From Arthonia radiata (lineage: Eukaryota > Ascomycota > Arthoniomycetes > Arthoniales > Arthoniaceae), in the NCBI GenBank assembly GCA_002989075.1, contig PSQN01000005.1, positions 1,935,241 to 1,999,240 of the forward strand: a DNA stretch of 64,000 nt, read 5' to 3'. Shown piece by piece: positions 2,946-45,059 of the stretch. The position numbers and the translations under genes are program-made. Position 1 is the stretch's first letter. Each line of letters starts with the position of its first letter. The notes beneath the pieces were generated by a model. That model saw only the letters and a program-made list of their open reading frames with translations. It had not been told where the DNA came from and did not search any database.

Positions 2946-2985
2946 AACTTTCAGACCTTCAGCTTCAGACCTTCAGCCTCAGACT
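2946..2985. repeat. Short direct repeat, CTTCAGAC-type
   Basis: The octamer-like unit CTTCAGAC or CTTCAGCT follows itself about four times with small variations. It is a simple local duplication with no evident function. Confidence 0.6.
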
Positions 2986-7608: not shown

Positions 7609-7683
7609 GCTTGCATCTCTGGTTCCCCTAGTGCTCTTGCATCTCTGGGTCCCCTTGTGCTCTTCCATCTTTGCTCCCACTTA
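7609..7683. repeat. Imperfect ~26-bp tandem repeat, about three units
   Basis: Units begin near 7609, 7632 and 7658. Each reads GCTCTTGCATCTCTGG-like followed by a TCCCC stretch, and the third is more diverged. A further weak unit may begin at 7684. It lies outside any gene I can support. Confidence 0.55.
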
Positions 7684-10600
7684 CGCTCTCGAGTCTCTCC
7701 GCGTTATATGTTTGTAATCAACAACGATCATTCAATTATTTCGGTGCTTGGAAAACTTGCGGCGGCACATCACTAATGCGCTTGCATCCGCTCTTTTACC
7801 CCTTGCACCACTTCACAACCCCTCTCTTGGAGCAGTCCATCTACTCAGCTCTCAAATACAATGTGGCAGCCGTGTCGTTTCGAGAACGACATGAGCCGCA
7901 AGTGTCTGGTGCATCGCACCTCCCTCATGCTGCAAGCCGCCGGCATGTTCAACATCAACATCAGATCGCGTTCGTGTGTCGTATTACTGATGCTAAGGGC
8001 GCAGCGCTGATAAAACTCGGTCCCAGATACTTTGCCGCAGCCGCATTCACCGTCTTAGCGACTCACAGCTTCCTACGTCATTTACATACGAAACAGTGTT
8101 TGAAACGTATGCTCCCCTCGGGGCTTTGGAACGCGCTTCTTTGTGGCGACAGCGATAGACATGAAAGCTATGCATGCACAAGACGTGGACCAACAGTTCA
8201 GATGATCTCAACATCCGCTTACTAAAAGTGAGATTCTCTTCTTTATATGCGAATAAAGCTGTTCACATGATTATACACGATCTTGGAAACAGACGCAACC
8301 TCGCTACGATAACAGCTCGTGCTTCCAAGGCTAAGCTGCACGCCTAGGGGACGTCAGCTATTATCTATACTGCCGTGGTGCAAACATATCCTTCAGCGGT
8401 TTTGTAGCCGACGCCGGAGCTACCTCGAACGTCGTGCTTCCGCAACGATGCTCATCCCTACAAAGCGACCGAGTTTTATGTGGACGCCAAACTTATCATT
8501 GCTAGCAGATACAGCCTCCTTGAGAGACAGACTCTTTACAGAGGCGTGAAGCAGTAGACGGCCCCTGGCAAACTTCTCATCACGGCTTTCGCGACCAAGC
8601 CAGTCCTTTGACTTCTACCGCTGTTGAAGCTTAGTGGCGCCTCAGGAGTACTATATGTAAGAGTAGCCGCAACCATATAGACTTGGGATCCTGGATCGAT
8701 ATCATGATTACACCTGCCTTCGGTATCTATAACCCTGTGCATGTTGATGCGCATGAGACCAAAACTGTCCAGGACTCAAGGGGAGATCACAGTGTCGGCC
8801 TGCTTCAAAGCCTCTCAGCAAAAGGCCCTTGTACGAAGGCAAGTGTGCATGGAGGGAAGCAACGAGAAGAATCAAACCAGGAGGATAATGCTGCGCATCA
8901 TACAAGCGCATTGAAAACATTAAACTGTCGCAAATACTCAGCCTTGCTGCATTTACGAGCCTGCAAGACGCAGCGAGTTTGCCGTATATCTAGCCCCCTG
9001 GTCGTTCATCGTGATGACTTGCGCTCGTTGCTCCAGAGTCTGTCTTGAAGCTTTTCTGTTGACACTTTCGGACTCCTAGTCATTTCGAAATTTTACATTC
9101 GCCACATGTTTTGCGTTGCAAATCTTTATTCCGGAATACTTACACTCCCGCCGTCTGCAAACAATGCCAGCGAGCCACTCAGGGTCTGTATTGCGACTTA
9201 GACAGCAACCGACCTAGGGGCGAACGCAAACACATTAAGGTCTCAGTACATGATTTCGAAAGAGCCCACGCGATGTGGCGCAGTCAAGATTCCCGCATAG
9301 TCTGGCGCATATAATTCGTAATCAGCAGCATCAAAACTTCCAATTATCTAGCCACAACTCCAGTCTCCAAACCAGTACTTGAAGGTATTTACATCCACCT
9401 AAACTTCGGCGCCCCTGGTCTGCCGGCCCGCATTTGATCTCCATCTTTCATTGCTCTTGATCGATGAGACAGACCTCGAAACCGCACCAAAAGCTATTGT
9501 TCAGCCACTTATGTCAGATAAGAAAGCGCACCCTGCGTCGCTCAAAAGGGTGCCGCTGCTGCTGCGTCCGCTGGTGTTTGTGCGCATCAACAAGAAGCGG
9601 TCGTGCACAGAACCCGATCATAATCCAGGGGAAAACCCGTCACTTATTTTCAGCGGCCAGTCATATCAGTCAAGCTTGAGACAGCGGTGGTAGTGTACTG
9701 ATGATTACCATCGAAGCAAAGCTCTGCGTTGAAGATTAAACAGCGTCAGTGAGCCTGGACCGTGATCTTCTTAACCACCTAAGCTCAGGTGTTGCCAAAG
9801 CCCCTCGGCAGGTGGTTTCATGACGAACGCTTCAGAGCTTTGCTCTTACCCGGGGGCCTGTTCCAGAAAGTTGACTGAGTAAGTAGTAATTGACATCGCC
9901 TGGATGTCGCCGTCTCTGATCATACCAGTCCCAGCGCTAGTGGAGCAGCGTGTTAAGTGCAGAAGTCGCAATGTATGACTTCAGCGAAACAACGGCACCC
10001 TCAATCGTGGTCAGATAGAGACATGAAGCGCAGGGGATCCTCAAGCCGGTGCAAGTCTCCCGCAACACTCACATTTCAAACAAGGACGACATTACTCACG
10101 TGGCCCAAATGCATTTGATGGTGATCTTCAACAGCTCTCGCTGCTCACAAGCACGTCTTCGAGGCCCAAGCATTTGCAATAGCGCATCGCAGGCAGTACA
10201 TTTGCAGTCATTCTGGCAGCACACGTCGAAGCCCCTGAAGTGGAGCTCGTAAATCTTAATGGCGGAAGCATCGAGAATTGTTTGAGACTTCTTGGGATGC
10301 CACAGATGCCAGGAACTGTTATAGCGGCACGAATGGACGCTGAGTATTGAGCCGAGACTTTACAAGTTCCAACACAAAACGAGGAGAGCATTGCGTCTTC
10401 CATCCATCATAGTACGAAGTTTGTCATAGGTTCTTGGATAGACAGAATCGGCAAAATTAGGGTCGAGCATTATTAGCGGTAGTGGCTTTGGCGCAGGGGC
10501 TCACTGATTTATCGTCATTTCCGGCTGTTCTCTCTGGAAACGGCCTGCTGTCTGTTGGTCATGTGGGTCGGATGAAGTGGCCATGGTCTCAATCACTTAC

Positions 10601-10765
10601 ACTTTCCGAGACCGACGAAGCGAAGCAGAGCACCCACAAACACTTTCCCGCATCTCCCAGCCCGACCGAATTGCAGCGCCCCTTGCCTTTGGGCCTGTTT
10701 TGGTTCCAAGCCCGCGTTTACGTACCATGAGTGCCTCCAGCTTAGTACCAGATGACAGAGGTATA

Positions 10766-11488
10766 TCAAACTTGACGACAGATCATGATTCTGAAAGCGC
10801 AGGCTGAGCGTCTCCAAATCTTGTCTGCTGAGACGATGCCATCACAACAATGCGAAGAATTTACATATCCGCGCAAATCCGCCGATGGACCTAAAGACTG
10901 TGCAGCGAAGTGATAGACGCGCACAAAGCGGGGAGCGTCGCTCAGGGGAGAGGTCGCTACCATATTGTGTCGGTCTCGCAGATACCATGCGATCTGAGTC
11001 GAGCCAAGTATGCGGTAAACATGAGCAGCTATGAGACGCATCAGCGCCGACCTCGGTTGATAATGAACAGCGTCGGCACGTTCTGACTCTCCGAAATGCA
11101 ACAGCATGAGTACAAATTGCAGCATCGCAGGCCCAAAAGTCACGGTGAGGCATAAGGGTGTGATTGTGGCGATGTTGTGGTCCCCTCTCAGTCCAGTCCC
11201 AATCATCAGCTTACCTGTAACAGTATGCTGCTCTTGCCCAACGGTCTCTTGCCTGCAAGTTACTATTATGATGCAAGCGCACCCACATGGCGGACGAACC
11301 ATTCGTACATATGTTTTTGAGAGCACTGAAACGGGTGATCTGTTATATTGTAGATTTGGAGCCAGCCAGGGGACGTCTAGTTGTATAGAGCGAAGGTTGA
11401 CGTCTTGAAGTGCCACTAGCCTTGAGGTGTGAGAGGTGAGCGTAGGATACATTATCTTGAGCAGTATGTGGATGGTAATGAAGGTCAT
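10766..11488 (-). CDS. Uncertain 240-codon open frame, unknown product
   Basis: This is the longest ATG-started open frame in the first 13 kb. I estimate that a frame this long would arise by chance in well under one in ten windows of this size and composition, so it deserves listing. The translation has hydrophobic patches (near residues 1-12, 70-80 and 108-130) but no motif I know, no signal peptide I would trust and no repeats. A second ATG-started frame of 103 codons (10842-11153 -) lies inside it in another register and contains a C-x2-C pair, so the true coding frame, if any, is unclear. A possible donor (CAG/GTAAGC) lies near 11210 on this strand. Confidence 0.2.
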   Translation of the reverse strand: MTFITIHILLKIMYPTLTSHTSRLVALQDVNLRSIQLDVPWLAPNLQYNRSPVSVLSKTYVRMVRPPCGCACIIIVTCRQETVGQEQHTVTGKLMIGTGLRGDHNIATITPLCLTVTFGPAMLQFVLMLLHFGESERADAVHYQPRSALMRLIAAHVYRILGSTQIAWYLRDRHNMVATSPLSDAPRFVRVYHFAAQSLGPSADLRGYVNSSHCCDGIVSADKIWRRSACAFRIMICRQV

Positions 11489-12671
11489 CAGTGATCATTC
11501 GAGCTATGGGACGATTTGCGTAGAAATTGGGTTCGATGGGTGGTCGCACATCTGGAATACCAGTCCCCTGTCTCAGGCTCATGGTCAGGCTCTTTGCAGT
11601 TTCGTTGCGCGGTGGATGAGACTACGTCCACTAAAGTTCGGGCGTATGTGGTCAGCGAAAAGCTAAGACTCTCTCTACGGAGAATGTAGAAAGCAAAGGT
11701 TAGCGTCTTTCGAAGAGCAGTCACAGAACAACGCTTGTATATTCACATCGCAAGAGCTGCAGAGAAGGCGTTATAGACGCGAGGACAGCCGGTGGATATG
11801 TTGTTGCGCTGGAAATCACCGCCGGGGCGTTGCCTGATACAGAGTGTTGTGAGCTATGCCCGCTACCTCTCGTACAATCCACGCCACTAGATTTCCATGC
11901 ACCTGATCTGTAATGTCGATGTTGTGCGTCTCCTCTGTTGTGCAGTCGAGACGGGCGAGGTGGACTCTCATCTTCCTGTTACTAATAGCATGAGGCTCGT
12001 GAATGGAGTTGAAGCCGAGTACCCTGTGCCTGCGATCACTATCCAAGGCGCTAGTAACGCCGACTGTTTTGCGACTTCTTTTCGCGATGGTACCCACGGT
12101 TGAATAATCGGCAGACCTACTGTCGATTAGTCATGTGCGGGTATAGTATCAATGTTGAGACAGACATGCTTGTGTTTGGGATGGTGGTGTTGTTGGGTGT
12201 CTTGACTAAGTTGTGCTGAGCCTGTGAAGGCTTCGAAGTTGATGCGAAAGAGGATGTGAGATGAGCGCACGAGTAGTTGACTTTCTCTGGGACGAGTAGC
12301 CGGCGTGCAACGTGGTTACTTCCAAAGCATGAGTGGTGTGTCGAGACTCACGAACCGATGCGCTTTACGATTCTAAGCTAAGCACTGCGCGGTATGTCCA
12401 CTGGACGTCTTGGGCGGAAGGCGTATGTTCTGACATCCGTCAAAGACTGCCACACTATGTCCTAGGATTGTCTGGCCGCCAGATCGGGATCGAAAGAGAG
12501 ACAGCAACTTGGGGCATCTGCAATCGCTCTCAAGATGACTGAGCGGTTCGTATGTGTTGTTGGTCATGTCTGCTGTTTAGCAAGGGAGTGGCAGAGCAAA
12601 TGCGTGGCTGGGACTACTGGTATAATGATTTCGGATGCGCTGCGTGTCGCAATAATCAGGCTTGCGGCTGA

Positions 12672-12926
12672 TGGCATGTCCACACTAGCAAGTTTCATTT
12701 GGATGTCGTCCGGTCAGCACTCGCAGACCTGCTGCCTGGTGTATCAATGAGTCAGGTAAAGGTACATAGATTGTCGCAAATGGTCAAACTGATGGAATAC
12801 GAGGATGTGGTCACCAGCAAAGACTGTCAGCGGCTCGTATACGCGGCCCGTATTTCCCGCAGTTTCGGAGAGGCAGCCGGTTTCATGAAGAGAATGCAGC
12901 AGGCATTTAGCGTCGGAGTAGATTGA
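12672..12926 (+). other. Isolated open frame without ATG start, possible exon or relic
   Basis: The frame is open for 84 codons. From its only useful ATG region onward it reads like a helical, ordinary protein (serine, valine, methionine and arginine rich, few rare residues). No ATG precedes the best part, so it would have to be an internal exon or a leftover. An ATG-started frame of 128 codons (12744-13130) overlaps it on the - strand and also looks plausible, so strand assignment is open. Confidence 0.15.
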
Positions 12927-13489
12927 CTGATAGCTGATCCACGGCCAGCGTGGGTTAAGGGCAAAAATGGAAGACATGGTGAAAGAAAGATGAGCGGGAG
13001 AAAGATTTTCCTGGACGCCACTCAATAGGGTTACAAAGCCCTTAGTGGTGTCGCTCCATGTCAATGTGACACCGCTGTCATCACCCCGTCGCAAATTCTG
13101 ACCAAGTGGATCTGAAGACCTTTTGAACATGCACGATGGGGTCGGATAAGCACAGCGATTGGATGACGAAAGTCTTTCATGTGTGCAATCTCCTCTAAAC
13201 CGCCAACGTCGGCCAGCTCGCTCTGTCAGCGGCCTCAGAGCAGCGCCGTCCTATGAAAGGATGGCACTCAGGGTCGTAGTTCAGATCTATGTGGCCGAAG
13301 GCTGGTTATCGTCCCGTGCTTCGCTGTGTTCAGATATGCGGCCATTGAGGCAGGTGCGATGATTCCCAATGATCATGTGAACAGCTGTATGTCCTTCTAC
13401 GCGGACACGTAGTCTCACCTACAATGACCCGCCCCATCCTGGATTGGCGTGATGACGCGAGCGTTGACGTGCCCGAAGTAGATCAAACA

Positions 13490-13495
13490 TATAAA
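13490..13495 (+). promoter_or_regulatory. TATA-like box upstream of the first array gene
   Basis: TATAAA stands 251 bases before the ATG at 13741, in a leader that is otherwise rich in A and C. Similar boxes precede several other genes of the array. Confidence 0.35.
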
Positions 13496-13740
13496 GCGAC
13501 ATATCTTCTTGCAGAACAGAGCGCCTTTGGATGCAGCATTCTTTCTTCACGCAATATAGTCAAAAAAGGCGAGCTTAGCTTCTGTTCTTACCCGCCATTT
13601 CCCTGATGTAAGCGCCTGGAGACTTCGTTCATTCGTTCACTGCATTCAGACTTTCACAAAAGCATTTGCAGAAATCGTTAGAGTCAGATCGACCGCAACG
13701 GCTCAAGTCGAGCAATCGCATCCAAGATTACGCCACAACT

Positions 13741-14475
13741 ATGGTGAAGTACAAAGAACACGAACTTCACAAGCATAATATCGTCTTCGAGGTCCCCAAC
13801 GGCCACCGTTACACCAAGCATTGGCTGTACTTTTTCACTCACGTATTCTTGGAGTCCTCTGTGGTTCCGCTGGAGTTCCGAAAGTATGAACATTTGGGCG
13901 AACGCCGCGTCGTGCTCAAAACCGAGACAGCTTTGCCCCATTTTTTGCGCACATCAAGCTCTGAAGAGACGTCTGCAATGTTGGTAGCTGCGAAGAATAA
14001 CGGCATCTTCCACAACGGCTTCCACAACCTTTTCGGCGGAGTCATTCTCTGGCAGGTACAGCATCCTCGGATGATGCCTCCACTCGTCTTTACGGAGGAC
14101 GATTCTTTCTTGGGATTGGTCGCTAAGCGACGGTTCGCTCGTAGGTTTGAGATGCCAAATTTGACGGCGTCCGAGTACGAAGAGATGGTTCAAGTCTGCT
14201 CGAGTGAGAATCACGAAGAGGACAAAGTCAAAAGGAAAACCCTTAAGGACGCCGGGGTGCCGGAACCGTACATCACGCCGCTGAAACTTTCCGAAGAATC
14301 TGCTACGGAGCGCGCGAGGGAACCACCACAGCCTCTCAAGATGCCAAAACTTATTGGAGAAATACTTGCAGATTCGAGGGCCGGGACGGTGAGGGGCAAG
14401 CGGGCGAAGGCAGAGAAACCTGCTCAGAACCCTGCACCCCCTCCCTCATACGTTTCGCTTTATTCTACTAAATGA
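13741..14475 (+). CDS. Array paralogue A: unknown ~190-residue family with a C-terminal extension
   Basis: This is a 244-residue protein of no function known to me. It is the only one of three paralogues with an uninterrupted frame. Features shared with the copies at 18090 and 20723, in order: an I-x-x-E-[IV]-P segment (residues 14-19), a W-x-Y-F-x-x-[KH]-V segment followed by L-x-S-x-x-[VI]-P (28-43), R-[RV]-V-L-K-like (56-60), H-P-x-M-M-P-P-L (108-115), Y-x-x-M-[VI]-x-[VL]-C (146-153) and A-G-[VI]-P-x-x-Y-I-T-P-L (171-181). After residue 184 it carries a 60-residue proline-, lysine- and alanine-rich tail absent from the other copies. No signal peptide or membrane span is visible, so a cytosolic or nuclear site is likely. 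The ATG at 13741 matches the start of the 20723 copy, and no in-frame ATG lies upstream. No intron is needed. A homology search with the three copies together would show whether the family has a name. Confidence 0.75.
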   Translation: MVKYKEHELHKHNIVFEVPNGHRYTKHWLYFFTHVFLESSVVPLEFRKYEHLGERRVVLKTETALPHFLRTSSSEETSAMLVAAKNNGIFHNGFHNLFGGVILWQVQHPRMMPPLVFTEDDSFLGLVAKRRFARRFEMPNLTASEYEEMVQVCSSENHEEDKVKRKTLKDAGVPEPYITPLKLSEESATERAREPPQPLKMPKLIGEILADSRAGTVRGKRAKAEKPAQNPAPPPSYVSLYSTK

Positions 14476-14571
14476 AAATGGCACCGCTGTGTTCCCCACC
14501 CTCCGGCCCTCACGGTCACCTGGGTCCTCCCACAAGGCATCCCCTTCCTTCGATACGCTACGGAGATTTGC

Positions 14572-14604
14572 GGGAGGAGGTGTATAGGGGAGGAGGTGTA
14601 AGGG
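14572..14604. repeat. Two-unit GGGAGGAGGTGTA repeat
   Basis: Two copies of a 14- to 16-base purine-rich unit stand directly side by side about 100 bases after the stop of paralogue A. They could form G-rich secondary structure, but nothing else marks them as functional. Confidence 0.5.
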
Positions 14605-14709
14605 CCCGAGGGGGTATATTTGCCGTCGCCCGGCATCAGCGCATTTTACCGCAGTCAGGCCATGCATATAATCTCTCACCCCCTATATGGTTGAAACGGT
14701 AACACAGTT

Positions 14710-14958
14710 TCATAGTTGTTCAGCAACGCCTGATACACGTGACCGTGGTGGTTCTCGATAACGCAGCACGACGTATGCACGTCTAGTGTACGCACTTATT
14801 ATCGCCCGCTTTTCGACAACAGGCGGGATCACAGCATCCGCGCGAACCTTAAGCTCGACTGTTGGGGCGGTCTTAAAGTCTTTAGGTGCCGCCGCGCCTC
14901 TTGGACGGACTTCTTCTATGTATGAAAGCCGCGAACGTAGCTGCCAGGAACACCACGC
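14710..14958 (-). pseudogene. Minus-strand open frame with a D-F-K-T-A-P-T-V motif, copy 1
   Basis: An 83-codon open frame without ATG start runs on the - strand between paralogue A and the first cysteine-rich gene. Its middle (14845-14900) matches 16205-16260 at about 77% by hand count. In this reading frame most differences are silent third-base changes (Asp-Phe-Lys-Thr-Ala-Pro-Thr-Val is kept in both). That pattern suggests both descend from a real coding exon on this strand. I do not recognise the protein. The lack of a start and of other exons points to a leftover fragment, though an internal exon of a living gene is not excluded. Confidence 0.35.
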
Positions 14959-15362
14959 TTATAGCGTCTACGGCGCCCATGAAAAACTTCTTTTGGTCCC
15001 TGTTTTGTTGGCAATTTGCTTCCTCAAATATAGATTATAGTGCACCTCCAACCGCAGTAAGAAAAGCAAAGCCAGTATTATAGCCTATAGCACGGCCGGT
15101 GAACGGTGTAGAGATACAAGAAAGCAGCACAGAAGGAGTTCAACGAGAAGATGATTTAGCCGCTCAAGGTTCCGAATGGACTCGGTATTGAGCGCCGAAG
15201 GTTGCGTTGGTGCGGAGAAGGTAAGGATAGTCAAGGTTTGCTGCGAGGTAGAGCGTCTGAAGGTGGCGGCTTTAGGCGAGCGTCGTCGTTTGAAGCCGCC
15301 TGGACTATTTATCAAGGGTTGACCTTACCTTCCTCTTCTGCCCCCTTGGCAAATCGAAAACG

Positions 15363-15368
15363 TATAAA
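15363..15368 (+). promoter_or_regulatory. TATA box of the cysteine-rich gene at 15501
   Basis: TATAAA lies 138 bases before the ATG. A second TATA-like stretch (CTATTTATC) is near 15306. The leader between box and ATG is rich in A and C, as is usual for fungal leaders. Confidence 0.45.
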
Positions 15369-15500
15369 ACCTCTGCAGCTCGCACAACCTTATAACCCGA
15401 ACATTCAAAAGCACAACTGGAACACGCTCTACATTCACAATCGTAGCAACCACTCAGCCACTTCACAATCTCGGTCAGATATCGCAAACCCTTCAAAAAC

Positions 15501-15848
15501 ATGTGTCAGAACATCATCCGCAAGTGGCACTCCTTCGATCACAACGACAGCCGCCACAACGAACTCGAAACTAAGCGCGAGGTGGAGTTGTGCGCTATCG
15601 CCAAAGCAAACAACAAAGGCAGTGGACAGGAGATTCCTTGCGACGCGGACCACATGTGCGTGTTTTGTGGGTTTCTCGAAAAGCACAAGTCCGAGTAGAA
15701 CCAGAGCTTTCGCGATCGACATGGTCATGCTGAGAAGAAGTTTCACTACATCTCCGACTCTGAGCGTCTCGTCTACAACAATGGGGACGCGTACTGGGAG
15801 ACCCTTTATTCGTATGGCTGGAATAGGTACCTTTGTCTTTTGGAGTAA
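15501..15848 (+). pseudogene. Small cysteine-rich family member 1 (Met-Cys type), one in-frame TAG
   Basis: The first open part encodes 65 residues with Cys at 2, 31, 47, 53 and 56, the last two forming C-x2-C. This fits the Met-Cys family shared with 16876, 21674, 22996 and 24100, except that the cysteines expected near residues 11 and 16 are missing. The frame stops at TAG (15696-15698), then continues for another 49 codons to TAA at 15846-15848 with balanced, charged, tyrosine-rich protein-like sequence. This includes an F-R-D-R-[HE]-G match to the gene at 19362. I therefore take the family member as about 115 codons with one stop inside. It may be a pseudogene, a shortened but living 65-residue protein, or a readthrough product. 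There is no signal peptide. The cysteine pattern suggests metal binding, which is inference only. Confidence 0.55.
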
Positions 15849-16875
15849 AGGGAGTGAGTCGTGGTCAGTGCGACTTCCAGGAACATTCTCACATAGCCTG
15901 TATATGCTACTGCTATGGAGGGCTGTCCGAAAGATGGTATGAAATAGTCAGTTGCGGGAGCCATTCAGCAACCTGTCGATCGAGCGAACGAGTTACATCA
16001 CAGCTATATTGAGTATCTTTGTACAGCGAATGGAAGATGCATGGTGCTCGAATTGTATTAATATCGCATCCAGACAACCTTGTGGGCCGGTCACCCCTTC
16101 TCCGCCTTGCACCGTCCTGCTGACAACTTGCTCGACCGCATGAGCATACGCTGCGGAGGAATGTAGCTTACGGAGAAAGATTTGAGCAGGACCGCAAGAC
16201 CCTAAACCTCAAGCTAGACCGTAGGGGCTGTCTTGAAGTCTGCGGGGACCGCAACGCCTCATTCAAAGGCTCATTCTGTGCTCTTAAGCTGCAAGCTTAG
16301 TCACCAAAAGAGAACACTGGTAGCTTCGTTTGTTTATGACATTAATGTTGACAGCTTGCTGTTTGAAGTACGTCTCCAAACGCGCCAAGTATGTAAAGGT
16401 AAGACTCACATCGTGACATGTGACCTGGCCGCTGCGGAGCGGTAATGAAGCGCGCACTTTGGACCGGGGATCGGCACATGCAACTGGCAATGACTTCCGG
16501 AAGAATGCGGAAAGAGCAGTCGCCCCCGGCTGTCAGCATTGTATATGGTAAGAGGCGGATGACAGAGGCTGTCCGCCACTGAGCGCACACCGCCGCAAGA
16601 GAGCATGGACGGGTTCCACGAGACGTGCCGCTAAGGGCTTGAGCGCTCAGTGCCGTCAATGATGGGCGACTGTTAACGCTTTCACGCGGCTCGCACGGGT
16701 ACCAGTCGGGGTCTTGCGTTTGCATTTTGTCATAGTAAGCGTTTGCAGAATACTACAAAAACATGCGACACTTCTCGGTCTTTCCTCCTCCTCAAACGAT
16801 CAAACCCCGCTGAGTTTCGAGACTTCACCCTCTCAGACCTGTCCAGCTCATCACCAACCCTATTTGACCGGCAGC
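15849..16875. other. Intergenic stretch between cysteine-rich genes 1 and 2
   Basis: It contains no gene I can support. It holds the second copy of the minus-strand D-F-K-T-A-P-T-V fragment at 16205-16260. The rest shows no recognisable coding signal; the longer - strand frames near 16342-16725 are not convincing. Confidence 0.5.
16199..16268 (-). pseudogene. Minus-strand D-F-K-T-A-P-T-V fragment, copy 2
   Basis: This fragment is the counterpart of 14845-14900, with about 43 of 56 bases alike by hand. In the shared reading frame the peptide Asp-Phe-Lys-Thr-Ala-Pro-Thr-Val is intact, followed by a stop where copy 1 has Glu. Flanking sequence no longer matches, so only a short core is left. 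It is a decayed piece of an unknown minus-strand gene family interleaved with the plus-strand array. Confidence 0.35.
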
Positions 16876-17325
16876 ATGTGCGGTACCAAGCATACTATCT
16901 ACCATTGTTGCAAAGACGAATGCGAAGATGTGACGAGGAAAACCAGGCAGTGAGGTCCGTGTACACTCGCCCAATACGTTGCAGATGTAGGCGTCCCAGT
17001 CGATCCATCGAAATGCCCTGAGAAAGGACCCATGCGCGAGGATGTTGTTGATACCATGCCATGCAAGAGGTGCATGAAAGCCGAAGAGAAGGAGAATCAA
17101 CAACAGGTCGCCCAAGAATCGAAGACCGAGGAAACTGGCCATGGAAAGCGGGTCCTTCAAGGTTTCAAGAAGATGTTCACCCACAGCAATGATTCGCAAG
17201 ACCAGGAATCCAAGAAGCGCCAAGCCAAGCCATCTGTCCTCCCCGTGGATCGCTCAAGGCTGAGGCATGACCTTTACATTCCAGCTCGAGGTGCCGCGAA
17301 AGTGTATCCGTGGAGGCCGAACTGA
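16876..17325 (+). pseudogene. Small cysteine-rich family member 2 (Met-Cys type), one in-frame TGA
   Basis: Reading from the ATG gives Met-Cys, then Cys 11, 12 and 16, then TGA at codon 26 (16951-16953). The same frame then runs open to codon 149 and supplies exactly the missing family cysteines (codons 29, 47, 63 and 66, the last two as C-x2-C). The whole frame, 150 codons with the final stop, matches the length of the intact member at 24100. The part after the core is lysine-, glutamate- and glutamine-rich and probably disordered. The stop therefore interrupts a single gene rather than ending a short one. It could be a recent pseudogene, a sequencing error or a readthrough site. No intron with usual signals removes the TGA. 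No signal peptide is seen. Confidence 0.6.
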
Positions 17326-18089
17326 CGTTCACTGTTCTGTTCCGGACCGAAATGGGCCAAAGGTGACGTGAAACAGTTCAATCTAGGGAGATCAAAAAAG
17401 GCCTTAGATGAGCTTGGTGGAGGGTTGGCATTCCTGGACAAGAACAATGGGTGGAAGATGAGTGATCTTAGATAGCGAAGACGTTCGAACGGACATTTTC
17501 TCTCAATGAAGATGGTGCAGCCTTGAGTGCTCAGGCATCTTCCCCCATCTCGAAAATGCTTGCCAAGTCATGTCCGACATGCTGGCTATCGCTCAGTTGC
17601 AGCAAGATCGCCTTGGTCACAGTCGATGTTTGGCCGTTGCATCAAGAGTGGCATAATCCTGTCTGCCGTCTTGCAAGCTCGCACTGCAATCCATCATCTC
17701 CCAGCGACACCGCTTACGTGGGGCGTGTATTGGCTTGATCTAACAAGGCGAGATGCTTTGCGTTCCCTCGTGTTTGGCGCATTTCCCGTCCTCTTCTCCG
17801 CGACGCGGATGGGTAAGGACGAAATGCCTGGCTATGGGCTGCAACGGCGCTCCAAGCCGAAGAGGACATATGGAAGGCTGTCGCCTGGAGTCGGCTCGCC
17901 CGGATGGTTGCGGATATCTCGTAGCGGTTTGAGACGGTCGCTTCTCCTGGGTCAGCATATAAATGAAACTTCGCCTCCTCGTCCGTTGAAACCTTTCAGT
18001 ATCAACAAACAGGTCTCCATCTACCGGTAACACCTTCCGATCTACCAGCGACTACCACGTGCTACGCAACAACCACCAGCTTCAGCAAC
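17326..18089. other. Upstream region and leader of paralogue B
   Basis: No gene is supported here. The open frame 17527-18030 + has no usable ATG and runs into the promoter, so I treat it as chance. A TATAAA box is at 17958-17963, and the last 130 bases before 18090 are an A/C-rich leader. Confidence 0.5.
17958..17963 (+). promoter_or_regulatory. TATA box of array paralogue B
   Basis: TATAAA stands 132 bases before the ATG at 18090. The spacing is close to that at 15501 (138 bases) and 19362 (118 bases). Confidence 0.45.
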
Positions 18090-18677
18090 ATGAGCTCCTC
18101 TAATACCAAAGAAGAGGTTCCGACCACGAATGACGACACGATCACGTACGATGACTTGACCTTGCAAAAGTACAGCGCTGTCATCGAGATCCCCTTGACG
18201 TTCCCCGGCCCGTACACCGGACACTGGAACTACTTCCTCTCGAAGGTCCTCCTGCCATCCAAATACATACCTAGCGACTTCCAGAACATTCAAGTCATCA
18301 ACAAGAGACGAATCGTGCTAGTGCCGGGAGACATACCGCTTGGCCCCATCACGCCCGAAAGACGGTCTATGGGCGATGACTTCTTCAGGGTCATGGCTAA
18401 ACACGGGGTAGCGAAAGTTCATGCGGCGAGATTCCACGAGAGAATGACCGTCATGAAAGCACAGCACCCTGAGATGATGCCTCCGCTCGCTGTTCTTAAA
18501 CCGCGTGCGGTCGGAAATGACTACGATATTGGGTATAGCAAACCGATCCTTGAAAAGGATGAGTATAAGGAGATGATAGCCTTGTGCAAGGGTTCTTCTC
18601 GCAACGACAAGAGTAAGAGTGAGGTCTTGCGCAACGCTGGTATTCCGAAGACGTAGATCACGGAGCTCGGGCTGTAA
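18090..18677 (+). CDS. Array paralogue B: unknown family, ends seven codons early at a TAG
   Basis: The protein has 188 residues and is a paralogue of A (13741) and C (20723). It shares I-E-I-P (residues 32-35), H-W-x-Y-F-x-[ST]-K-V-L-L followed by S-x-x-[IV]-P (45-61), R-R-I-V-L (73-77), H-P-E-M-M-P-P-L (126-133) and a Y-K-E-M-I-A-L-C stretch near the C-terminus. The frame stops at TAG (18654-18656), at the place where A and C have the Tyr of Y-I-T-P-L. Behind it the expected I-T-x-L codons and a second stop (TAA, 18675-18677) follow. The loss is only a few residues, so this copy may still work. No signal peptide, membrane span or intron is seen. Function is unknown. Confidence 0.75.
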
Positions 18678-19361
18678 AGTGTGTTACGTGGGACAGACTT
18701 GGAAAGAATCGGACTAGTGACAATTTTGGGAGGTGCTGAGTTAGTGATGAGCTGGGCCGTTCAGTCAGCAAGAAGAACGGGCGCTTAGTTGACAAGATAA
18801 TACGAGCGCCATTCAATCCCCGATTCAGAATGCGCTGTCTTGTTGCCAGACTTGCTGTAATGCAAGTGATGCGTGTCCGTCCGTGAATTTGAGTAGAGCA
18901 TGTCGAAGTCCCCTAAGCGGACGGGGCCATGTTTAGTACTTTTGGTCCTTCTATTGTGGGGGTATGTGATCAGATAGTCGAGTTTGCACACAACGCCCCT
19001 TGCAAATGATCTTTCACTACAACGATCGTGACCTCAGCTCGTAACTTCTCGCTCGGCATGATGCGGCTTCAAGGCCAAGCGCATCACGAGCTGCGCCGAC
19101 GGATGAAGGCGGTGATACCTGACCGTGGGTGTAAGCGGTTCAATCCGACCGCGACGAAGGGCACACTGCCGCTTTTACTCGGCTGAGAGGATGCAAGCGG
19201 CTGCGATGCGCCCGTTTGGCCGTTGCTGCCTCCTCAGAGTGGACATAAATACACGGTGTTGCCCTCAGTATTGATTTGAAGCATACACAACACCATACTA
19301 CGACAATAACTTGATCTTAAACACCAGCCGCAGAAGTAAGCAGGCCTGATAGCAGCACATA
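18678..19361. other. Intergenic stretch between paralogue B and the 19362 gene
   Basis: I see no gene here. The last 120 bases form a promoter and leader with CATAAATA at 19244-19251. Confidence 0.5.
19244..19251 (+). promoter_or_regulatory. TATA-like box of the 19362 gene
   Basis: CATAAATA lies 118 bases before the ATG and is followed by an A/C-rich leader of the same style as the other array genes. Confidence 0.4.
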
Positions 19362-19874
19362 ATGTTGTTCGACAAGTTGTCTCGCGAATGTCATGAATCT
19401 GAGGATGACGGCAAGGATCCTCTCCTACCGAAAGACAACGCCAAAAACTCCGACAAAAAGCCGGACCCCAATCAAGTTACACGGCAAGATGTGGAAGAGA
19501 GACTCGATGAGCTCTTAATATTCCATGTATGCCCTAGATTAGGCAAAGGCTACGATGAGTCAGACCTCAGTCGCGAATGTGACTGCTGCAAAGTCTCAAA
19601 AGAGAAAGACGCGCTTCGAAAGAAGGGACTGGGTGATACAATTGAAGCAATGGAGGCGCAGGATATTGAACCCTCGGAAGCCGAGAAGCGACTCCGTGGA
19701 ATCGCACTGCTCTGGGCACAAGAGAAGAAGTTGTTGTATCCCTACGTGGAGTCGCGCTTTCGCGACCGTGAGGGCGACCGTCTTTATAATGCACGCATCA
19801 GAGCGCCCTCCAAGAAGGCCATGCAAACTTACCAGAGACCGGCTTCCCTGGCGGCATGGATGGGACAAATTTGA
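19362..19874 (+). CDS. Cysteine-containing hydrophilic protein, divergent relative of the Met-Cys family
   Basis: The product has 170 residues and is very rich in charged residues. The first 50 residues are acidic and lysine-rich, probably disordered. A C-P-R-L segment at residues 57-60 followed by C73, C75 and C76 resembles C-P-R-L...C-x2-C of the 24100 protein (residues 45-64). Near the end, F-R-D-R-E-G matches the sequence behind the stop of the 15501 gene. These links make it a diverged family member that has lost the Met-Cys start, but the similarity is short. The ATG at 19362 has a good promoter upstream, and no earlier in-frame ATG fits. The frame is uninterrupted. There is no signal peptide or membrane span. 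Function is unknown. Confidence 0.6.
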   Translation: MLFDKLSRECHESEDDGKDPLLPKDNAKNSDKKPDPNQVTRQDVEERLDELLIFHVCPRLGKGYDESDLSRECDCCKVSKEKDALRKKGLGDTIEAMEAQDIEPSEAEKRLRGIALLWAQEKKLLYPYVESRFRDREGDRLYNARIRAPSKKAMQTYQRPASLAAWMGQI

Positions 19875-20722
19875 GCGGAGGATTGGCAGTCGCATTCGCA
19901 AGCCAAGGAAAGCCCCAGTGAATAATCTCCGAAATGGCAGGCATCGAGCCTGTACTTACCCCGGCTGGCTCCTTGCAACGAACGATAGGCGGCGGAGGAT
20001 AGGACCGATTAGAGCTCCGACAATACAAACCCGTACTTTGTTTTCGGGGTTTGGGCGTGTTTTCCGTACACTCGAGAAGCTTCTGTGCAGATGCGGTTCT
20101 TTATGACACAACGTCATTCGTTACGAAGTCAGTGGACCGCTTACCTTTAGAAGCCGCGCTACGCCAGTACATAGAACCGATATCACACCAACTCTGACTT
20201 CAAAGCCGAATAGCTTACTTTCATGCTACCGTCATATGCCGCAGGTGTGTCAGCAGCGCAATGTCCTCTGCCTTGCACGTTGGGCATCTCAATCATCAAC
20301 CACCTGAGGCTGTCGTAAGTGATATCAGCTTACCCGCTCACTGGTCCAAATCTCGCGTTGCGTGCCGCAAGGTGAGACCAGGCCTGTCGCGCGTTGCTCG
20401 CTTAGACGAGGGCGCAAATGCCTCGCCATAGCATGAGCGGAGGAAGCCGACAGTGACGAGGGGGACAGCGTCGCATGAATTCGGCTCGGCTGGGAGCGGC
20501 CGATTGTGTTGCTTCCGTGTGATACCTGCGTCTTTATCTCCAGGTGCACATATATACGTCTTCATACCCACACTTCATTACAGCTCTCAGAGCATATACC
20601 AAACCTCCACGAAAGCCACTGCATCAACATTGAGCCAGCAGTACACAGCAACAGACTTTTTGGTACAGATTCACCGGAAAGCGACCTTATCAGGCATCAC
20701 AACTGATACCGATACAGCGAAC
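19875..20722. other. Upstream region of paralogue C
   Basis: No gene is supported here. TATATA at 20551-20556 lies 172 bases before the ATG at 20723. The open frame that reaches back to 20453 in the coding register has no upstream ATG that matches the family start. Confidence 0.5.
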
Positions 20723-21292
20723 ATGGGCGACGATACCGTCGAATACCGGGGAAAGCCCCTTGACAAGCACAGTATACTGATAGAAGTCCCGCGCGATAAC
20801 CCGGATGACTACCTGAAACTTTGGATGTACTTCATCACCAAGGTACTCCTAACGTCAAAACAAGTTCCGCAGCGGTTCCGTGACTTCGAAAATTGGAACG
20901 ACGGCCGCGTCCTCCTCAAAGCCAAGAGAGCGTCGGACATTCGGAACTGGTCTTTCTTCGAGGACGAAGATACACGCCGTTGGAAGCGAGTGTTGGACCA
21001 AAACAGCATCAAGGAAGCCTCAAAGCAACCAGTTTGGGTCTTTCGAGTGGAGAACGCTCATGTCATGCCTCCACCTTTCGTCGTCTAGACGGAGGGTTTC
21101 TGGGATGTAATCGCCGAAGGCTGGCGGGAGGGAAACCAGAAGTATGGTGTGTCGGAGTCTTCGTACAAAAAAGCAGTCGCAGTGTGCCACGACGATACAC
21201 TGACCAACGAGGTAAAGTGTGAGGTCTTGCGCAAGGAAGGGATACCCATCGGGTACATCACGCCCCTCACTCCTGCACAGCCAAAGCACTAG
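20723..21292 (+). pseudogene. Array paralogue C: unknown family, one in-frame TAG in the middle
   Basis: From the ATG the frame gives 121 residues with the family signatures: S-I-L-I-E-V-P (17-23), Y-L-K-L-W-x-Y-F-x-T-K-V-L-L followed by S-x-x-V-P-x-x-F-R (30-53), R-V-L-L-K (62-66) and H-V-M-P-P (113-117). TAG follows at 21086-21088. The same frame then continues open for 67 codons to TAG at 21290-21292. It contains the rest of the family, including a Y-x-x-A-V-A-V-C equivalent and E-G-I-P-x-x-Y-I-T-P-L at the end. Total length (about 188 residues) equals that of B. This is one gene with a single interruption: a young pseudogene, a sequencing error or readthrough. No intron removes the stop. 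Confidence 0.65.
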
Positions 21293-21673
21293 CGGTACTA
21301 CGCTGATGAGGCCACTCCATCCGGGTTAGCTGGGGATCAGATGGTTCGATAGTGATAACAACGCTTCGAGATTGAACATGCCCACAAACCTGTTTTGTTC
21401 CATATTAGCAAAATTGCAGCAAACGCTTCCGCACCTAGTGCCTTTCACGCAGCTAGGCGGCGGCTTTGTGAAAGCAATCGGCCAGCTTCTCTGCCTTGCG
21501 CCTTGTGCTGCACCTTGTCAACTGCCATCTCATAGTCCACTCAAAGACCCCTTCATTGGGCAAACTCACAGTGCAACAACACTCAGCCCCACAACACAAT
21601 CACCCACAGACTTCCCAAGGCTAGTCAACCATCCGTCTATTCACCCACTTACTCACAACCAAGCCCCTCAACA
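21293..21673. other. Intergenic stretch before the 21674 gene
   Basis: No gene is seen. The last 150 bases are C- and A-rich with many CCCAC and ACAA runs, typical of a fungal leader. No clear TATA box is present. Confidence 0.5.
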
Positions 21674-21934
21674 ATGTGCAAACGCGTCCAAACAATCTTC
21701 CACTGCACCAACTACCCGCTCGGCTGCCCCAACCTCACCCGCCGCACTCAAGTGGACGTCTTTGAGACCTGCTTCGTCGCCTATGTCGGCGGTATCAAGC
21801 CAGGAAAGTGCCCGTACACATTTCAGAAGAAACCGATTCAGCAGCATGTTGCTTCCATGGCCCATTGCGGGAATTGTCTGATCCGGAAGGGTGAGATAGA
21901 ACGCATGAGGAGACTCAGGCGGAGTGGGTGGTAG
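21674..21934 (+). CDS. Small cysteine-rich family member 3 (Met-Cys type), intact
   Basis: The protein has 86 residues and the family cysteine pattern at 2, 11, 18, 33, 46, 65 and 68, the last pair as C-x2-C. The C-terminus is basic (several Arg-Arg pairs). There is no signal peptide, so it is not an obvious secreted effector. The even spacing and terminal C-x2-C suggest a small zinc-binding fold, which is inference. Family length varies here from 83 to 150 residues, and this copy lacks the long tail of 16876 and 24100. The ATG is the first in the frame that yields Met-Cys. It follows the C paralogue by about 380 bases on the same strand. Confidence 0.7.
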   Translation: MCKRVQTIFHCTNYPLGCPNLTRRTQVDVFETCFVAYVGGIKPGKCPYTFQKKPIQQHVASMAHCGNCLIRKGEIERMRRLRRSGW

Positions 21935-22407
21935 GGAGAGCCTTCAGGCGCCGGCGGGGAGTTGGGATGGGATGGATGACGCAGGGCTGAGGTTGCTTGG
22001 GAACAGAGGTGCGGCAGACTGTGGTGTTGGACCGTGAGTGCGTTGAGCTTGTCAGAGCTGGCAGTGCATCCGGGAAGGCGCGATACAGTTCGTGTTCGTG
22101 AACGATTTTGTACGAGATGCTCGTCTGTCAAGGACACAGATGCCCCTTTCGAACAACTAGGGCGCGTTCTATCTGTACATTTCTGTGGCAGTCGCTTCAC
22201 CCGGACGCACGACTTACCTTCCCCGCGCATCAACATTCTATTGCGCCCATACGCGCACGGCAGAGCGCGGGACTCGAGCCGAGCAGGCACGGCAGCAGCA
22301 CCTTCGACTGTGCTGCCCGCCCCTTTCACCACCGCTCCGCAATATCAGCAGTTGTGCGATGCCTACACCGTGAACCCTGGGATGTACTGAAAGCACAACT
22401 ACTGGCA
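21935..22407. other. Intergenic stretch between 21674 and the 22408 fragment
   Basis: The overlapping open frames 22034-22390 and 22108-22554 + have arginine- and serine-rich translations typical of non-coding sequence until about 22400. I see no separate gene. Confidence 0.4.
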
Positions 22408-22554
22408 CGATGGCACCAAGGTGACTGTGCCAAGCACGAGACCATCTCGATGAACGCGACGAACTCGAAAATTGCGGCGAGAGATGGCAGAAATAAGATC
22501 GATGCGGCGTCGAAGCTAAAGGAAAAGGTTGCGAAGATGCGCAGCTCGTCGTAG
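22408..22554 (+). pseudogene. Possible C-terminal remnant of a Met-Cys family gene
   Basis: The last 48 codons of a longer open frame read R-W-H-x-G-D-C-A-K-H-E and then a lysine- and alanine-rich helix. The R/K-W-H start and some of the DNA resemble codons 8-10 onward of the 15501 gene. The upstream part with Met-Cys and the C-x2-C core is absent or unrecognisable. I read this as the tail of a decayed family member inside the array, with low confidence. Confidence 0.3.
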
Positions 22555-22995
22555 TCTGTGGGAAACAGGTGTGGGATAAAAAGTAGTGGGTGCGATGTTG
22601 ATGATCGATTGAGCTTGACGATCTAGAGCGAGGTGAGGAAGACATGCAGTATGGTGAAAGCTGTGTGACAACTGTAGCGTGCCTTGTAGCCTGTACTTGC
22701 TTGTTCAATGAACTGTCGCTTCCCACTTCTCAATCCATCTCCTGTATCACTTCTGTGCCTGCTGTGCGCGTTTGGAGGTGGCGAGCCACTAGGCACTATC
22801 AAACGCCGAATGTCACCTACATGTTTACTGCAGGCTTTTCCGACTCTTAAATTTCTTAAGCGTCAACTCAGCGCCTGCTCTTCTACAACTACTCCGTTTT
22901 GCACAATTGGACAGTACCAACTCGAACCACTCAGCAACACCACGTCACTCCCAGCCCTCTTCTCGCTCAACCCCAACCTATACTCCGTGAGCACG

Positions 22996-23247
22996 ATGTG
23001 CACGATGAAGGTCATACGCATCTACTGCAACGACAAAGACTGCAAGAACCTAGTCGATAACTCGCAGCGCGAGACACAGTATTGCAAGTCCGCGAAATCG
23101 GGAGACATGTGCACTGCGCACGAGCTGCGCCCGGTCACCAAGAAGGACGGCCGTCTATGCGAAGTGTGTGTCATCAATAGCATGAGCTCGAAGGAAGTGA
23201 CGGATATGGTCCTCCATGGGCTCTCACTCTTGGAGGATAAGTCATGA
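22996..23247 (+). CDS. Small cysteine-rich family member 4 (Met-Cys type), intact
   Basis: The protein has 83 residues with cysteines at 2, 11, 16, 30, 39, 55 and 58 (C-x2-C at the end), the clearest short form of the family. The ATG at 22996 is chosen because it gives the Met-Cys start; the frame is open further upstream but without a family match. There is no signal peptide, and the product is small, soluble and slightly basic, probably cytosolic or nuclear. A metal-binding role is inferred from the cysteine spacing only. Neighbours 21674 and 24100 are in the same orientation about 1 kb away on either side. Confidence 0.7.
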   Translation: MCTMKVIRIYCNDKDCKNLVDNSQRETQYCKSAKSGDMCTAHELRPVTKKDGRLCEVCVINSMSSKEVTDMVLHGLSLLEDKS

Positions 23248-24099
23248 AGGGGTTCTCACATTGTTCGAGGAGGAGACTGCGCCAGCGCTCAGCCTATGCT
23301 GCGGATGATTGAAGGGGCAAGCAGGCGCTCGCGTGTTCAGATGGACGACGGCTCTGGTGAGCGGCGCGTGAGATAACAGACTGTTGCAAGATTCGTAAGA
23401 TCATCGCGCTCTGGACCATGAAAAGTATCTCGGGTCTTCTCTTCTTATGTGCGTTTCCTTCATAAGCCGTGCACACGCGCTCGTGGAACCCAGACCGCGC
23501 CCAAGAGGTCAATACTTTCTGACGTGATCAGTGTTGTCCATATGCAAAACCTAAAGTTGGAGGAACCATCACCAGAGCCTAGCGAGCGCTTTCGTATCCC
23601 AACGGACAAATCGAAGGCATCACGCACTCGTCGCGATTGTGGACAAAGGGGGCTTTGGCCTGCGGTCTAGCAACTTTCAAGGAAGATACCATATTGTGAT
23701 ATCAGTGAATGAACATCTGCCCTGTGCACGCTGAGTCAGTCTGTTCATAGGTAAGACATCGCCCCAACGCATGGTGAGCTTGCCCGAACGGGCCTCACAA
23801 ATGTGGCCCTCGTGCCGCATTCGGCACAGACAAGCTGTCCACTAAGATGGGGCCGCCCAATGCGTCGCGCAAGCTGTCCACACATTAGCATATAATCTCT
23901 GACGTAGGGCATCCGTCCTGTGTCTCATTCGCTGGCTGCCACGTCTTCTTCTTGACAATGTCTCCCAGCCCAATAGTCTTCACTGCGTCTTCTCTTATAC
24001 CAATCTCTTACTACTCGACGACGAAATCAGCAACGATATACGCAGCCATCTCGCGCCCGGTCGCGACATCTCGAACATCTTTCTGTAAACCCCTACGAC
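23248..24099. other. Intergenic stretch before the 24100 gene
   Basis: I see no gene. A TATAAT box is at 23891-23896 and an A/C-rich leader follows. Confidence 0.5.
23891..23896 (+). promoter_or_regulatory. TATA-like box of the 24100 gene
   Basis: TATAAT is 209 bases before the ATG, a longer spacing than for 15501, 18090 and 19362. Confidence 0.35.
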
Positions 24100-24552
24100 A
24101 TGTGCAACCTCGACCAGATCCACTTCCAGTGCAGGCGCGCGTATTGCGCCAACGCCATCCGTACGTCGGAGGAGCCGCAAGTGACCGAGCGGTGTCGCAA
24201 AGCCTATCGGAAGCAGCTCGAACCTTGCCAATGCCCGCGACTCACGTATGGTGACAAGATCGCCAAGGACAGCGAGCTGTGCTGGTCATGCGAGCAGGAA
24301 TGGAATAAGCAGGCCGGTATCTATGTCGTCGAGGAGATCCTTGAGGAAAAGCGTTTCCAGGAAGAGATACTGGGGGAGAGGCCTTTCGAGGAGCGGATGG
24401 GTGAGGAGATTCTGGAAGAGGGGCTTGCGGAAGAGAAGACGCTGCTGCAGAAGTCGAGTCGCCTGGAGGAGGAGGACTGGCCCGCGTATGTTGCCATGTG
24501 GGACCGTGTTCTGGGTAAGGTGAACACGAAGATTCTGCGGCGGACATCCTAG
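24100..24552 (+). CDS. Small cysteine-rich family member 5 (Met-Cys type) with a glutamate-rich repeat tail
   Basis: The 150-residue protein has the family core with cysteines at 2, 11, 16, 32, 43, 45, 61 and 64 (C-x2-C). After residue 75 follows a glutamate-rich region of about 40 residues in which E-E-I-L-[EG]-E recurs three times with F-[EQ]-E-x spacers, likely a charged helix or coiled coil. The last 30 residues are tryptophan-containing and more ordinary. The repeat is visible in DNA as GAGGAGAT-type units, so it may change length by slippage. There is no signal peptide. It is the last member of the plus-strand array and is intact. Function is unknown. Confidence 0.7.
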   Translation: MCNLDQIHFQCRRAYCANAIRTSEEPQVTERCRKAYRKQLEPCQCPRLTYGDKIAKDSELCWSCEQEWNKQAGIYVVEEILEEKRFQEEILGERPFEERMGEEILEEGLAEEKTLLQKSSRLEEEDWPAYVAMWDRVLGKVNTKILRRTS

Positions 24553-28462: not shown

Positions 28463-28600
28463 CGAACCGCCGTTACGAGAACCGGTACCTCGGGACCCGG
28501 CGGTTTGAGTCAAAGAGCGCGGAGCCTCCACTTGCCTGTCTCCCATCGATCAACCCCAGAAATCGCAAAGCTGGCTGCCGCAGTCATTCCACCCTCCCAG

Positions 28601-30037
28601 ATGCAGTCTGGGACGAACCCCCTAGGAGGAGGAGCTGGGCCGTCAAGCTTCACAGCTAGGAAATCAGCAGCATCAACATTGCCTAGTTTTGAGTTACCAC
28701 CTCCTCAGATTACCAATGTGCACGAGAGCAAGTACCAACCGTTCAGTAGCCCATCTGGCGGACAGACGTTGTCTGGTTCCGGCAGTTTGGCGAGTGTAGG
28801 CAATCTTCTGACTCCTCCCAATACAGTTCCTGGTGATGGCCTGAGTCCAACCACTGCAGCGAACGTGGCTGCATTCGCCCATCAAGCTTCCCAGCAAATG
28901 AACAACCTCGCGTTCGCTCATAACGGATACTGGCCGTCCTCCAATCAGCAAGCTCAGCAGCTAGTGCCATCACCATCACAACAGTTTCCGCAATCGACTC
29001 AAAGACATTGGATACCACCAAGTGGCATGTACGCACTGTCACCAGGGAGCTCCTCAGCTAGAGCCACTGACTATGGGCTCCCGGCAAAGAGCCCGCAACC
29101 AAACACCTCTTCTGCAGATCTCTACCAGCTGCCTCCGTTCAACGCAACTATGTCAATGGCGGGCCCGATGAGTCTCCCGGCCATGTATCCTCCATCACTT
29201 CCTCTGAGCGCTGGCATGATGCAGCAACAGATGAGTAATTCGCAGATGCCTCCTCTCCAGTCTCAAGACCAATTTGGCGGTGTTCGACTTCCACCCACGC
29301 CGACATATTCAAATCAACCCACGTCAACGTCGTCACCTCAGCCGAACCCTTTCTCACCCTCCTCAGCCTCCGCTTCGTCGCTCAACCCGATGAGACCGCC
29401 CACATCCAACAGCCAAAAACAAACACACTCAGCGCCTGGCAGTTTGGACTTTGGCCAGTCGTTACCTTCGCAGCAGTCCCCCTCGCAGTTTCAACGTCCT
29501 TTCGGGCAGTACTCCCTCCCAAACAGCAACGGCAGCGCGCACATGAATGGGTCAGTGATGGCCAGCATGCAGCAACCCAATACGGGTATGCCTTTTGTGG
29601 GCAATCCTATGTCGGCGAGCCTCATGCCACCGTATCCGACCGGGCACGTACAGGCAATTTACGCGGCTCACGGCGGCCACCCTGGACACGGACCAGCCAG
29701 CGACCGTCCGTTCAAATGTGACCAATGCATGCAGTCGTTCAACCGGAACCATGACTTGAAGCGGCACAAACGAATACATCTAGCCGTGAAACCTTACCCG
29801 TGCGAATTCTGTGACAAGAGCTTTTCGCGCAAGGACGCTCTCAAGGTATGTTGTGGTATCCCTGTGGATTCGCATCTAAGCTTCACGCTGACGAATTGGT
29901 AGAGGCACATGTTAGTAAAAGGGTGCGGCAAGGTTCGCATGGACTCGGATCCGAATGATGATGGCGATGGCTCTTCATCTGCAGGATCACCACAAGCAAT
30001 ATCCATACCTGAGCATACGCCGTCTTTCTCTCGATAG
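28601..30037 (+). CDS. C2H2 zinc-finger transcription factor, FlbC-like
   Basis: Exons are 28601-29845 and 29903-30037. The 57-base intron (GTATGT...CTGAC...TAG) splits the second finger. The product has 459 residues from the first in-frame ATG. Residues 1-360 are serine-, proline-, glutamine- and methionine-rich and probably act as a transactivation region. Finger 1 is residues 371-393 (C-x2-C, H-x3-H; N-R-N-H-D-L-K-R-H core). Finger 2 is 399-423 with C401, C404 and H417 and a final Cys423 in place of His. Two C-terminal fingers with this N-R-N-H-D-L-K-R-H...S-R-K-D-A-L-K-R-H arrangement resemble fungal FlbC and, more remotely, Swi5/Ace2 regulators of development and cell separation; the FlbC label is inferred from memory. 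The frame stays open upstream of 28601 to 28463 with protein-like sequence, so a further 5' exon and longer N-terminus are likely. Confidence 0.85.
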
Positions 30038-44904: not shown

Positions 44905-45059
44905 TTTCACAAGCTCAACCCTATTGCTGATCAGTCTTTAAATGTTGAGATGTGAACTGCCTTCCTCATCTTGTTTTCCATTCTCCTCTGGGTCCAGACT
45001 CGAGAGCTCGCACACGGACTCATATCATTAGCCACGGTCTTCGTGTATTGAAAGTAATC

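What the first reader, a model, noticed from the sequence alone, without database searches (positions are those of the whole stretch)
13741..24552. Co-oriented array of ten small genes from two unrelated families
In 11 kb three paralogues of one unknown family (13741, 18090, 20723) alternate with seven members or fragments of a small cysteine-rich family (15501, 16876, 19362, 21674, 22408, 22996, 24100), all on the + strand. The order suggests a two-gene module (unknown protein plus one or more cysteine-rich proteins) duplicated about three times. This kind of mixed tandem array of lineage-specific genes is the most novel structure in the window and hints at a shared function or at a duplication-prone locus. 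Membership is seen in the sequence; module duplication is inference.
Basis: partly seen in the sequence, partly recalled or inferred. Interest (0 to 1): 0.85.

Follow-up and report, generated by a model that had tools for sequence, protein, structure and literature searches.

The report
Decaying fungal tandem array, two families
About nine small neighbouring fungal genes from two apparently unnamed protein families, all facing the same way, look like an old set of gene duplicates in which several copies are now broken; it is a fairly ordinary kind of array, although the two families themselves could not be identified.

Summary
The array is real but smaller and more damaged than described. Family A (13741, 18090, 20723) is a secure paralogue trio. 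In family B, four members are supported (16876, 21674, 22996, 24100): they share a full cysteine pattern found only in the array and in 0 of 100 random sequences (pattern written after the fact). 15501 is probable and 19362 only possible; 22408 is not supported. That leaves about nine genes, all on +, spaced about 1.3 kb apart. Three carry internal in-frame stops (15501, 16876, 20723) and 18090 has one near its end; coding signal or homology continues past them. No module-sized DNA repeat was found and the A/B order is what chance gives (0.42), so a two-gene module duplicated three times is not supported. No match reached Pfam cut-offs; NCBIfam, PDB, viral and prokaryote searches gave nothing credible. 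No fungal genome collection was available, so distribution and synteny in fungi are untested. Best reading: an old birth-and-death array of two possibly lineage-restricted, probably non-secreted families, B perhaps zinc-binding.

The parts
13741..14475 (+). Family A copy 1, open frame, 244 aa, no intron needed
   Evidence: coding segment 40.4
15501..15698 (+). Probable divergent family B member, 65 aa to an in-frame TAG; coding-like frame continues to about 15818
   Evidence: cysteine spacing only; not significant by profile; coding segment 15447-15818, score 23.5
16876..17325 (+). Family B copy interrupted by an in-frame TGA at 16951-16953; both flanking pieces match 21674
   Evidence: (p 3.5e-4 and 3.7e-5); the first piece has a negative coding score (-0.19)
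18090..18656 (+). Family A copy 2, 188 aa; TAG at 18654-18656 falls inside the conserved end, six more codons follow in frame
   Evidence: tblastn with 13741 aligns through to 18674
19362..19874 (+). Possible family B relative, 170 aa, keeps only a CP-x-CxxC end; lacks the MC start
   Evidence: coding segment 28.5
20723..21292 (+). Family A copy 3 interrupted by TAG at 21086-21088; piece 21089-21289 is still homologous to the A family
   Evidence: (p 7.4e-6 and 1.2e-6 for the second piece)
21674..21934 (+). Family B, open frame, 86 aa, 7 Cys
   Evidence: slightly negative per-codon coding score (-0.041), segment 18.1
22996..23247 (+). Family B, open frame, 83 aa, 7 Cys
   Evidence: weakest of the core in leave-one-out (E 0.68, eighth row, fifth outside the training set)
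24100..24552 (+). Family B, open frame, 150 aa, 8 Cys, long charged tail

Best explanation
An old birth-and-death tandem array in a fungus. Single genes with their own upstream DNA, roughly 1.3 kb per unit, of two probably lineage-restricted and non-secreted families were duplicated locally in the same orientation, more likely one gene at a time than as A+B pairs. The A copies have diverged to about 30-48% amino-acid identity, and some copies of both families are now being lost to nonsense changes. Family B most likely binds zinc through conserved cysteines that include a CxxC pair and acts as a small intracellular binding or adaptor protein; family A is a small soluble protein of unknown fold. 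Shown: paralogy, orientation, spacing, constraint in A, stops with coding or homology continuing past them. Inferred: the mode of duplication, zinc binding, intracellular location, lineage restriction and any function.
For: A paralogy. B cysteine pattern 3-4 in the window versus 0 in 100. The nine gene segments (18.1-40.4) are the nine best coding-like segments between 1 and 28400; the best other there is 16.6. A-copy pN is 0.42-0.50 against pS 0.56-0.76 in 5 pairs, and the piece after the 20723 stop is alike (pN 0.42-0.45, pS 0.64-0.76), which suggests that the stop is younger than the duplications. Start-to-start spacing CV 0.18, P 0.00045, 0.0049 and 0.026 under three nulls. No shared intergenic DNA found. 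Dinucleotide indices in the array 0.71 and 1.18, not RIP-like by thresholds I recall. No secretion-like N-terminus by a crude hydropathy scan of 8 pieces (16876 not included).
Against: One-gene-at-a-time duplication is not shown directly; the copies are too diverged to see breakpoints. By identity and p the closest A and B pairs lie in matching places, though not by raw score. Zinc binding rests on cysteine spacing alone; both structure models were too poor to use (mean pLDDT 44.4 and 52.8). Family B is weak at sequence level. The spacing test counts 15501 and 19362 as members and leaves 22408 out. Unassigned coding-like segments elsewhere in the window reach 23.2, so the 18.1 of 21674 alone would not prove a gene. 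Lineage restriction was not tested in any fungal genome.
Confidence: 0.62

Rival explanations
1. A functional A+B module, two proteins that work together, was duplicated as a unit about three times, with extra B copies added later.
For: A and B are interleaved and co-oriented; the A pair closest by identity (13741, 20723) lies upstream of the B pair with the lowest p (16876, 21674).
Against: No module-sized DNA repeat; an order without adjacent A genes is expected in 35 of 84 arrangements; by raw score the top pairs are others (13741-18090 and 22996-24100).
Confidence: 0.15
2. The region merely tolerates duplicates: copies pile up in a gene-poor stretch and decay, with no role for the locus as such.
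For: Three of nine genes carry internal in-frame stops and a fourth one near its end; in 1-13.5 kb no coding-like segment scores above 15.2, and 8 of 8 ORFs tested from there had no Pfam match at E up to 0.01.
Against: pN is below pS in 8 of 8 A comparisons, and five genes (13741, 19362, 21674, 22996, 24100) show no internal stop.
Confidence: 0.15
3. The stops are sequencing or assembly errors and the copies are intact.
For: Coding signal or homology continues past the stops.
Against: No in-frame stop occurs in the roughly 2500 codons of flanking conserved genes used for training, although those stretches were chosen as open frames, so this is weak.
Confidence: 0.06

Closest known systems
Tandem arrays of lineage-specific paralogues under birth-and-death evolution (general kind; recalled)
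   Same: Adjacent, co-oriented, diverged paralogues with some broken copies
   Different: Two unrelated families are interleaved, and neither has a credible match in the Pfam, NCBIfam and PDB searches made here
Clusters of small secreted cysteine-rich effector genes of plant-associated fungi (recalled)
   Same: Small, cysteine-rich, clustered, no known domain
   Different: No secretion-signal-like N-terminus in 8 translated pieces by a crude hydropathy scan; the MC start and CxxC end suggest metal binding inside the cell (inference)
Small intracellular CxxC proteins of ascomycetes (recalled lead, not tested)
   Same: MC at the start, several cysteines, CxxC near the end
   Different: No profile match found; zinc and fold not shown

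Membership tests
Birth-and-death tandem array | Adjacent paralogues significantly similar | tested here: met
   A. B core of four:
Birth-and-death tandem array | Broken copies among intact ones | tested here: met
   In-frame stops in 15501, 16876, 20723 and near the end of 18090; sequencing error not excluded
Birth-and-death tandem array | Copy number differs between related species | not testable with these tools
   No fungal genome collection; own genome not held
Small secreted cysteine-rich effectors | N-terminal secretion signal | tested here: not met
   Crude hydropathy scan of 8 pieces, highest 12-residue mean in the first 40 residues 1.47; no dedicated predictor was available and 16876 was not included
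Small secreted cysteine-rich effectors | Expression during host contact | not testable with these tools
   No RNA data
Zinc-binding CxxC proteins | Conserved paired cysteines | tested here: met
   The CxxC pair is invariant in the six aligned sequences, 15501 and 19362 included
Zinc-binding CxxC proteins | Known zinc-binding fold or bound metal | tested here: inconclusive
   Only sub-cut-off Pfam matches, among them zf-TRAF_2 at E 0.055 and zf_Rg at E 0.086; no PDB match; model mean pLDDT 52.8
Co-duplicated two-gene module | Repeat unit spanning A and B | tested here: not met
   units may have diverged beyond recognition
Co-duplicated two-gene module | Conserved A-B adjacency in other species | not testable with these tools
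   No relatives in the two collections searched, neither of which is meant to hold fungi

The most novel reading that the evidence does not exclude
A and B encode partner proteins of a rapidly diversifying two-component system (for example self-recognition, or a driver-and-antidote pair), so that new partner sets keep arising and old ones are broken at this locus.
Probability: 0.05. Interest if true: 0.75.

Novelty: new member of a known kind. Interest (0 to 1): 0.33.

Why it matters
If the two families prove to stay linked in other fungi, the array would point to a partner system missed by domain databases. As it stands it adds two protein families without a credible match in the libraries searched here, and an example of gene birth and loss in a gene-poor fungal region.

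Tried and rejected
Considered and dropped. 22408 as a family B fragment: no pair with p<0.05, segment 12.4 within noise, no Pfam match; its per-codon score is positive (0.161), so it may be a piece of something else. 9063-9311 as an extra B member outside the array: profile E 0.032, but coding score -0.17 and no matching cysteine layout. Introns removing the stops: judged by eye for 20723 and 16876 only; the residues that would be lost are among the conserved ones. RIP as cause of decay: indices not RIP-like by recalled thresholds. A shared TATA-like promoter: 3 of 9 genes against 1.06 expected at random places, frequency 0.08. A CPRL pattern was written with the wrong spacing and matched nothing; it is not used. 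Structural library search: not run, because both models were too poor.

Led nowhere. Relatives of A in viral contigs and prokaryote genomes, and of B in viral contigs and prokaryote genomes: some stretches matched the peptide patterns, none was confirmed by tblastn. These collections are not meant to hold fungi, so this says nothing about fungal distribution. Pfam scans of 9 and then 4 pieces gave only sub-cut-off matches, the best RA_2 at E 0.0094 for 22996; NCBIfam one sub-cut-off match at E 0.066; PDB one match at E 1.6 for A and none for B. Six paper searches, seen as search listings with abstract openings, showed no description of such an array; no paper was opened.

Changes after checking the draft: the module rival went from 0.18 to 0.15, because the matching pairs hold by identity and p but not by raw score; sequencing error went from 0.05 to 0.06; 19362 went from probable to possible, because 5 of 9 matches to its pattern lie outside the array.

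Full report
Setting. No whole genome is held for this window. It is fungal: the kinase gene at about 31.6-35.6 kb has a fungal kinase-associated-1 domain (PF16797, E 4.7e-17) downstream of protein kinase domain pieces (E 1.7e-8 and 2.3e-45). The species is unknown. ARAGORN found no tRNA and Rfam gave no match at gathering score.

Family A. The three larger genes are paralogues beyond reasonable doubt. Smith-Waterman scores against 300 shuffles give p 1e-15, 3e-14 and 6.7e-15, extrapolated from a Gumbel fit. tblastn within the window at E up to 1 finds only these three places, at E 3e-12 to 1e-17. Leave-one-out profiles find each missing copy first among sequences outside the training set, at E 2.5e-25, 1.6e-22 and 1.8e-19. 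Identity is 30-37% over the aligned copies (31-40% for the second piece of 20723) and 34-48% over the first 60-62 codons. pN is below pS in 8 of 8 comparisons, so the copies were probably kept as proteins after they split; pS is near saturation and the ratio is only a rough guide.

Family B. Four genes share MC-x8-C-x4-6-C and later C, C and CxxC (16876, 21674, 22996, 24100). With the stop in 16876 tolerated there are 4 matches to the full pattern, all in the array and on +, against 0 in 100 Markov sequences. The pattern was written after looking at the sequences, so this is not a blind test; MC-x8-C alone also occurs at 47374 and 1965 on the minus strand. Of 78 pairs of pieces tested across both families, 12 had p<0.05, where about 4 are expected by chance; the nine below the Bonferroni level are 5 A-A and 4 B-B piece pairs, the latter from three gene pairs (16876-21674 twice, 21674-24100, 22996-24100). 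Leave-one-out profiles rank the missing B member first outside the training set in 3 of 4 cases (E 0.0015, 0.019, 0.19), but 22996 only fifth, at E 0.68. So B is a real but very diverged family. 15501 keeps the MC start and later cysteines but lacks those at positions 11 and 16; the profile does not recognise it. 19362 keeps only a CP-x-CxxC end, a pattern of which 5 of 9 occurrences in the window lie outside the array; hhalign gives E 0.031 at probability 1.6%. I count 15501 as probable, 19362 as possible, and 22408 as unsupported.

Coding signal. With codon usage from 2519 codons of flanking genes, 11 of 13 array pieces score positive in their frame, 22408 included; the exceptions are the short first piece of 16876 and 21674. 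In a six-frame scan the nine genes give the nine best coding-like segments between 1 and 28.4 kb (18.1-40.4; best other 16.6). No null was run for that scan, and unassigned segments further along the window reach 23.2, some of which may be genes.

Broken copies. The frame of 20723 meets TAG at 21086-21088, yet the next 67 codons are still A-like (p 7.4e-6 and 1.2e-6) with pN and pS like those before the stop. 16876 meets TGA at 16951-16953 with B homology on both sides. 15501 meets TAG at 15696-15698 with coding signal beyond, though its second piece has no significant match. 18090 meets TAG at 18654-18656 within the conserved end; six codons follow before the next stop, and a tblastn alignment with 13741 runs through them. 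I read these as fairly recent nonsense changes; sequencing error is possible but less likely.

Arrangement. The order is A B B A B A B B B. Chance gives no adjacent A genes in 35 of 84 orders. Spacing between starts is even (951-1760 bases, CV 0.18; P 0.00045, 0.0049 and 0.026 under three nulls), which fits duplication of gene-plus-promoter units of similar size; the result depends on counting 15501 and 19362 in and 22408 out. No shared intergenic DNA was found: direct matches of 68, 29 and 48 nt lie between A genes. By identity and p the closest A and B pairs lie in matching places, but by raw score they do not, so module duplication stays open at low probability.

What it is. No piece has a Pfam match at its cut-off or a credible NCBIfam match (22408, the tails of 15501 and 20723, and the first piece of 16876 were not given to NCBIfam). 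PDB profile searches gave one A match at E 1.6 and no B match. N-termini show no secretion-like hydrophobic stretch by a simple measure in 8 pieces. Structure models are not usable. The best-supported account is an old array of two interleaved, possibly lineage-restricted families undergoing birth and death. Zinc binding by B is inferred from its cysteines alone. Whether A and B act together is unknown, and is the question that would raise the interest of this locus.

Noticed in passing
   Followed up: yes
1-13500: Gene-poor stretch: no coding-like segment above 15.2 in a six-frame scan; 8 of 8 ORFs tested from it and 10769-11494 had no Pfam match at E up to 0.01; 9063-9311 had one sub-cut-off match.
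   Followed up: partly
31601-35651: Kinase gene with protein kinase and fungal KA1 domains over three open frames, probably split by introns.
   Followed up: no
44949-47003: Glycoside hydrolase family 2 gene in one long open frame.
   Followed up: no
61600-63657: Aldehyde dehydrogenase family gene in two open frames, probably joined across an intron.
   Followed up: no
28463-29899: C2H2 zinc-finger protein with a long low-complexity N-terminal part.
   Followed up: no
7610-7689: Short tandem repeat, 26-base unit, about 3 copies.
   Followed up: no
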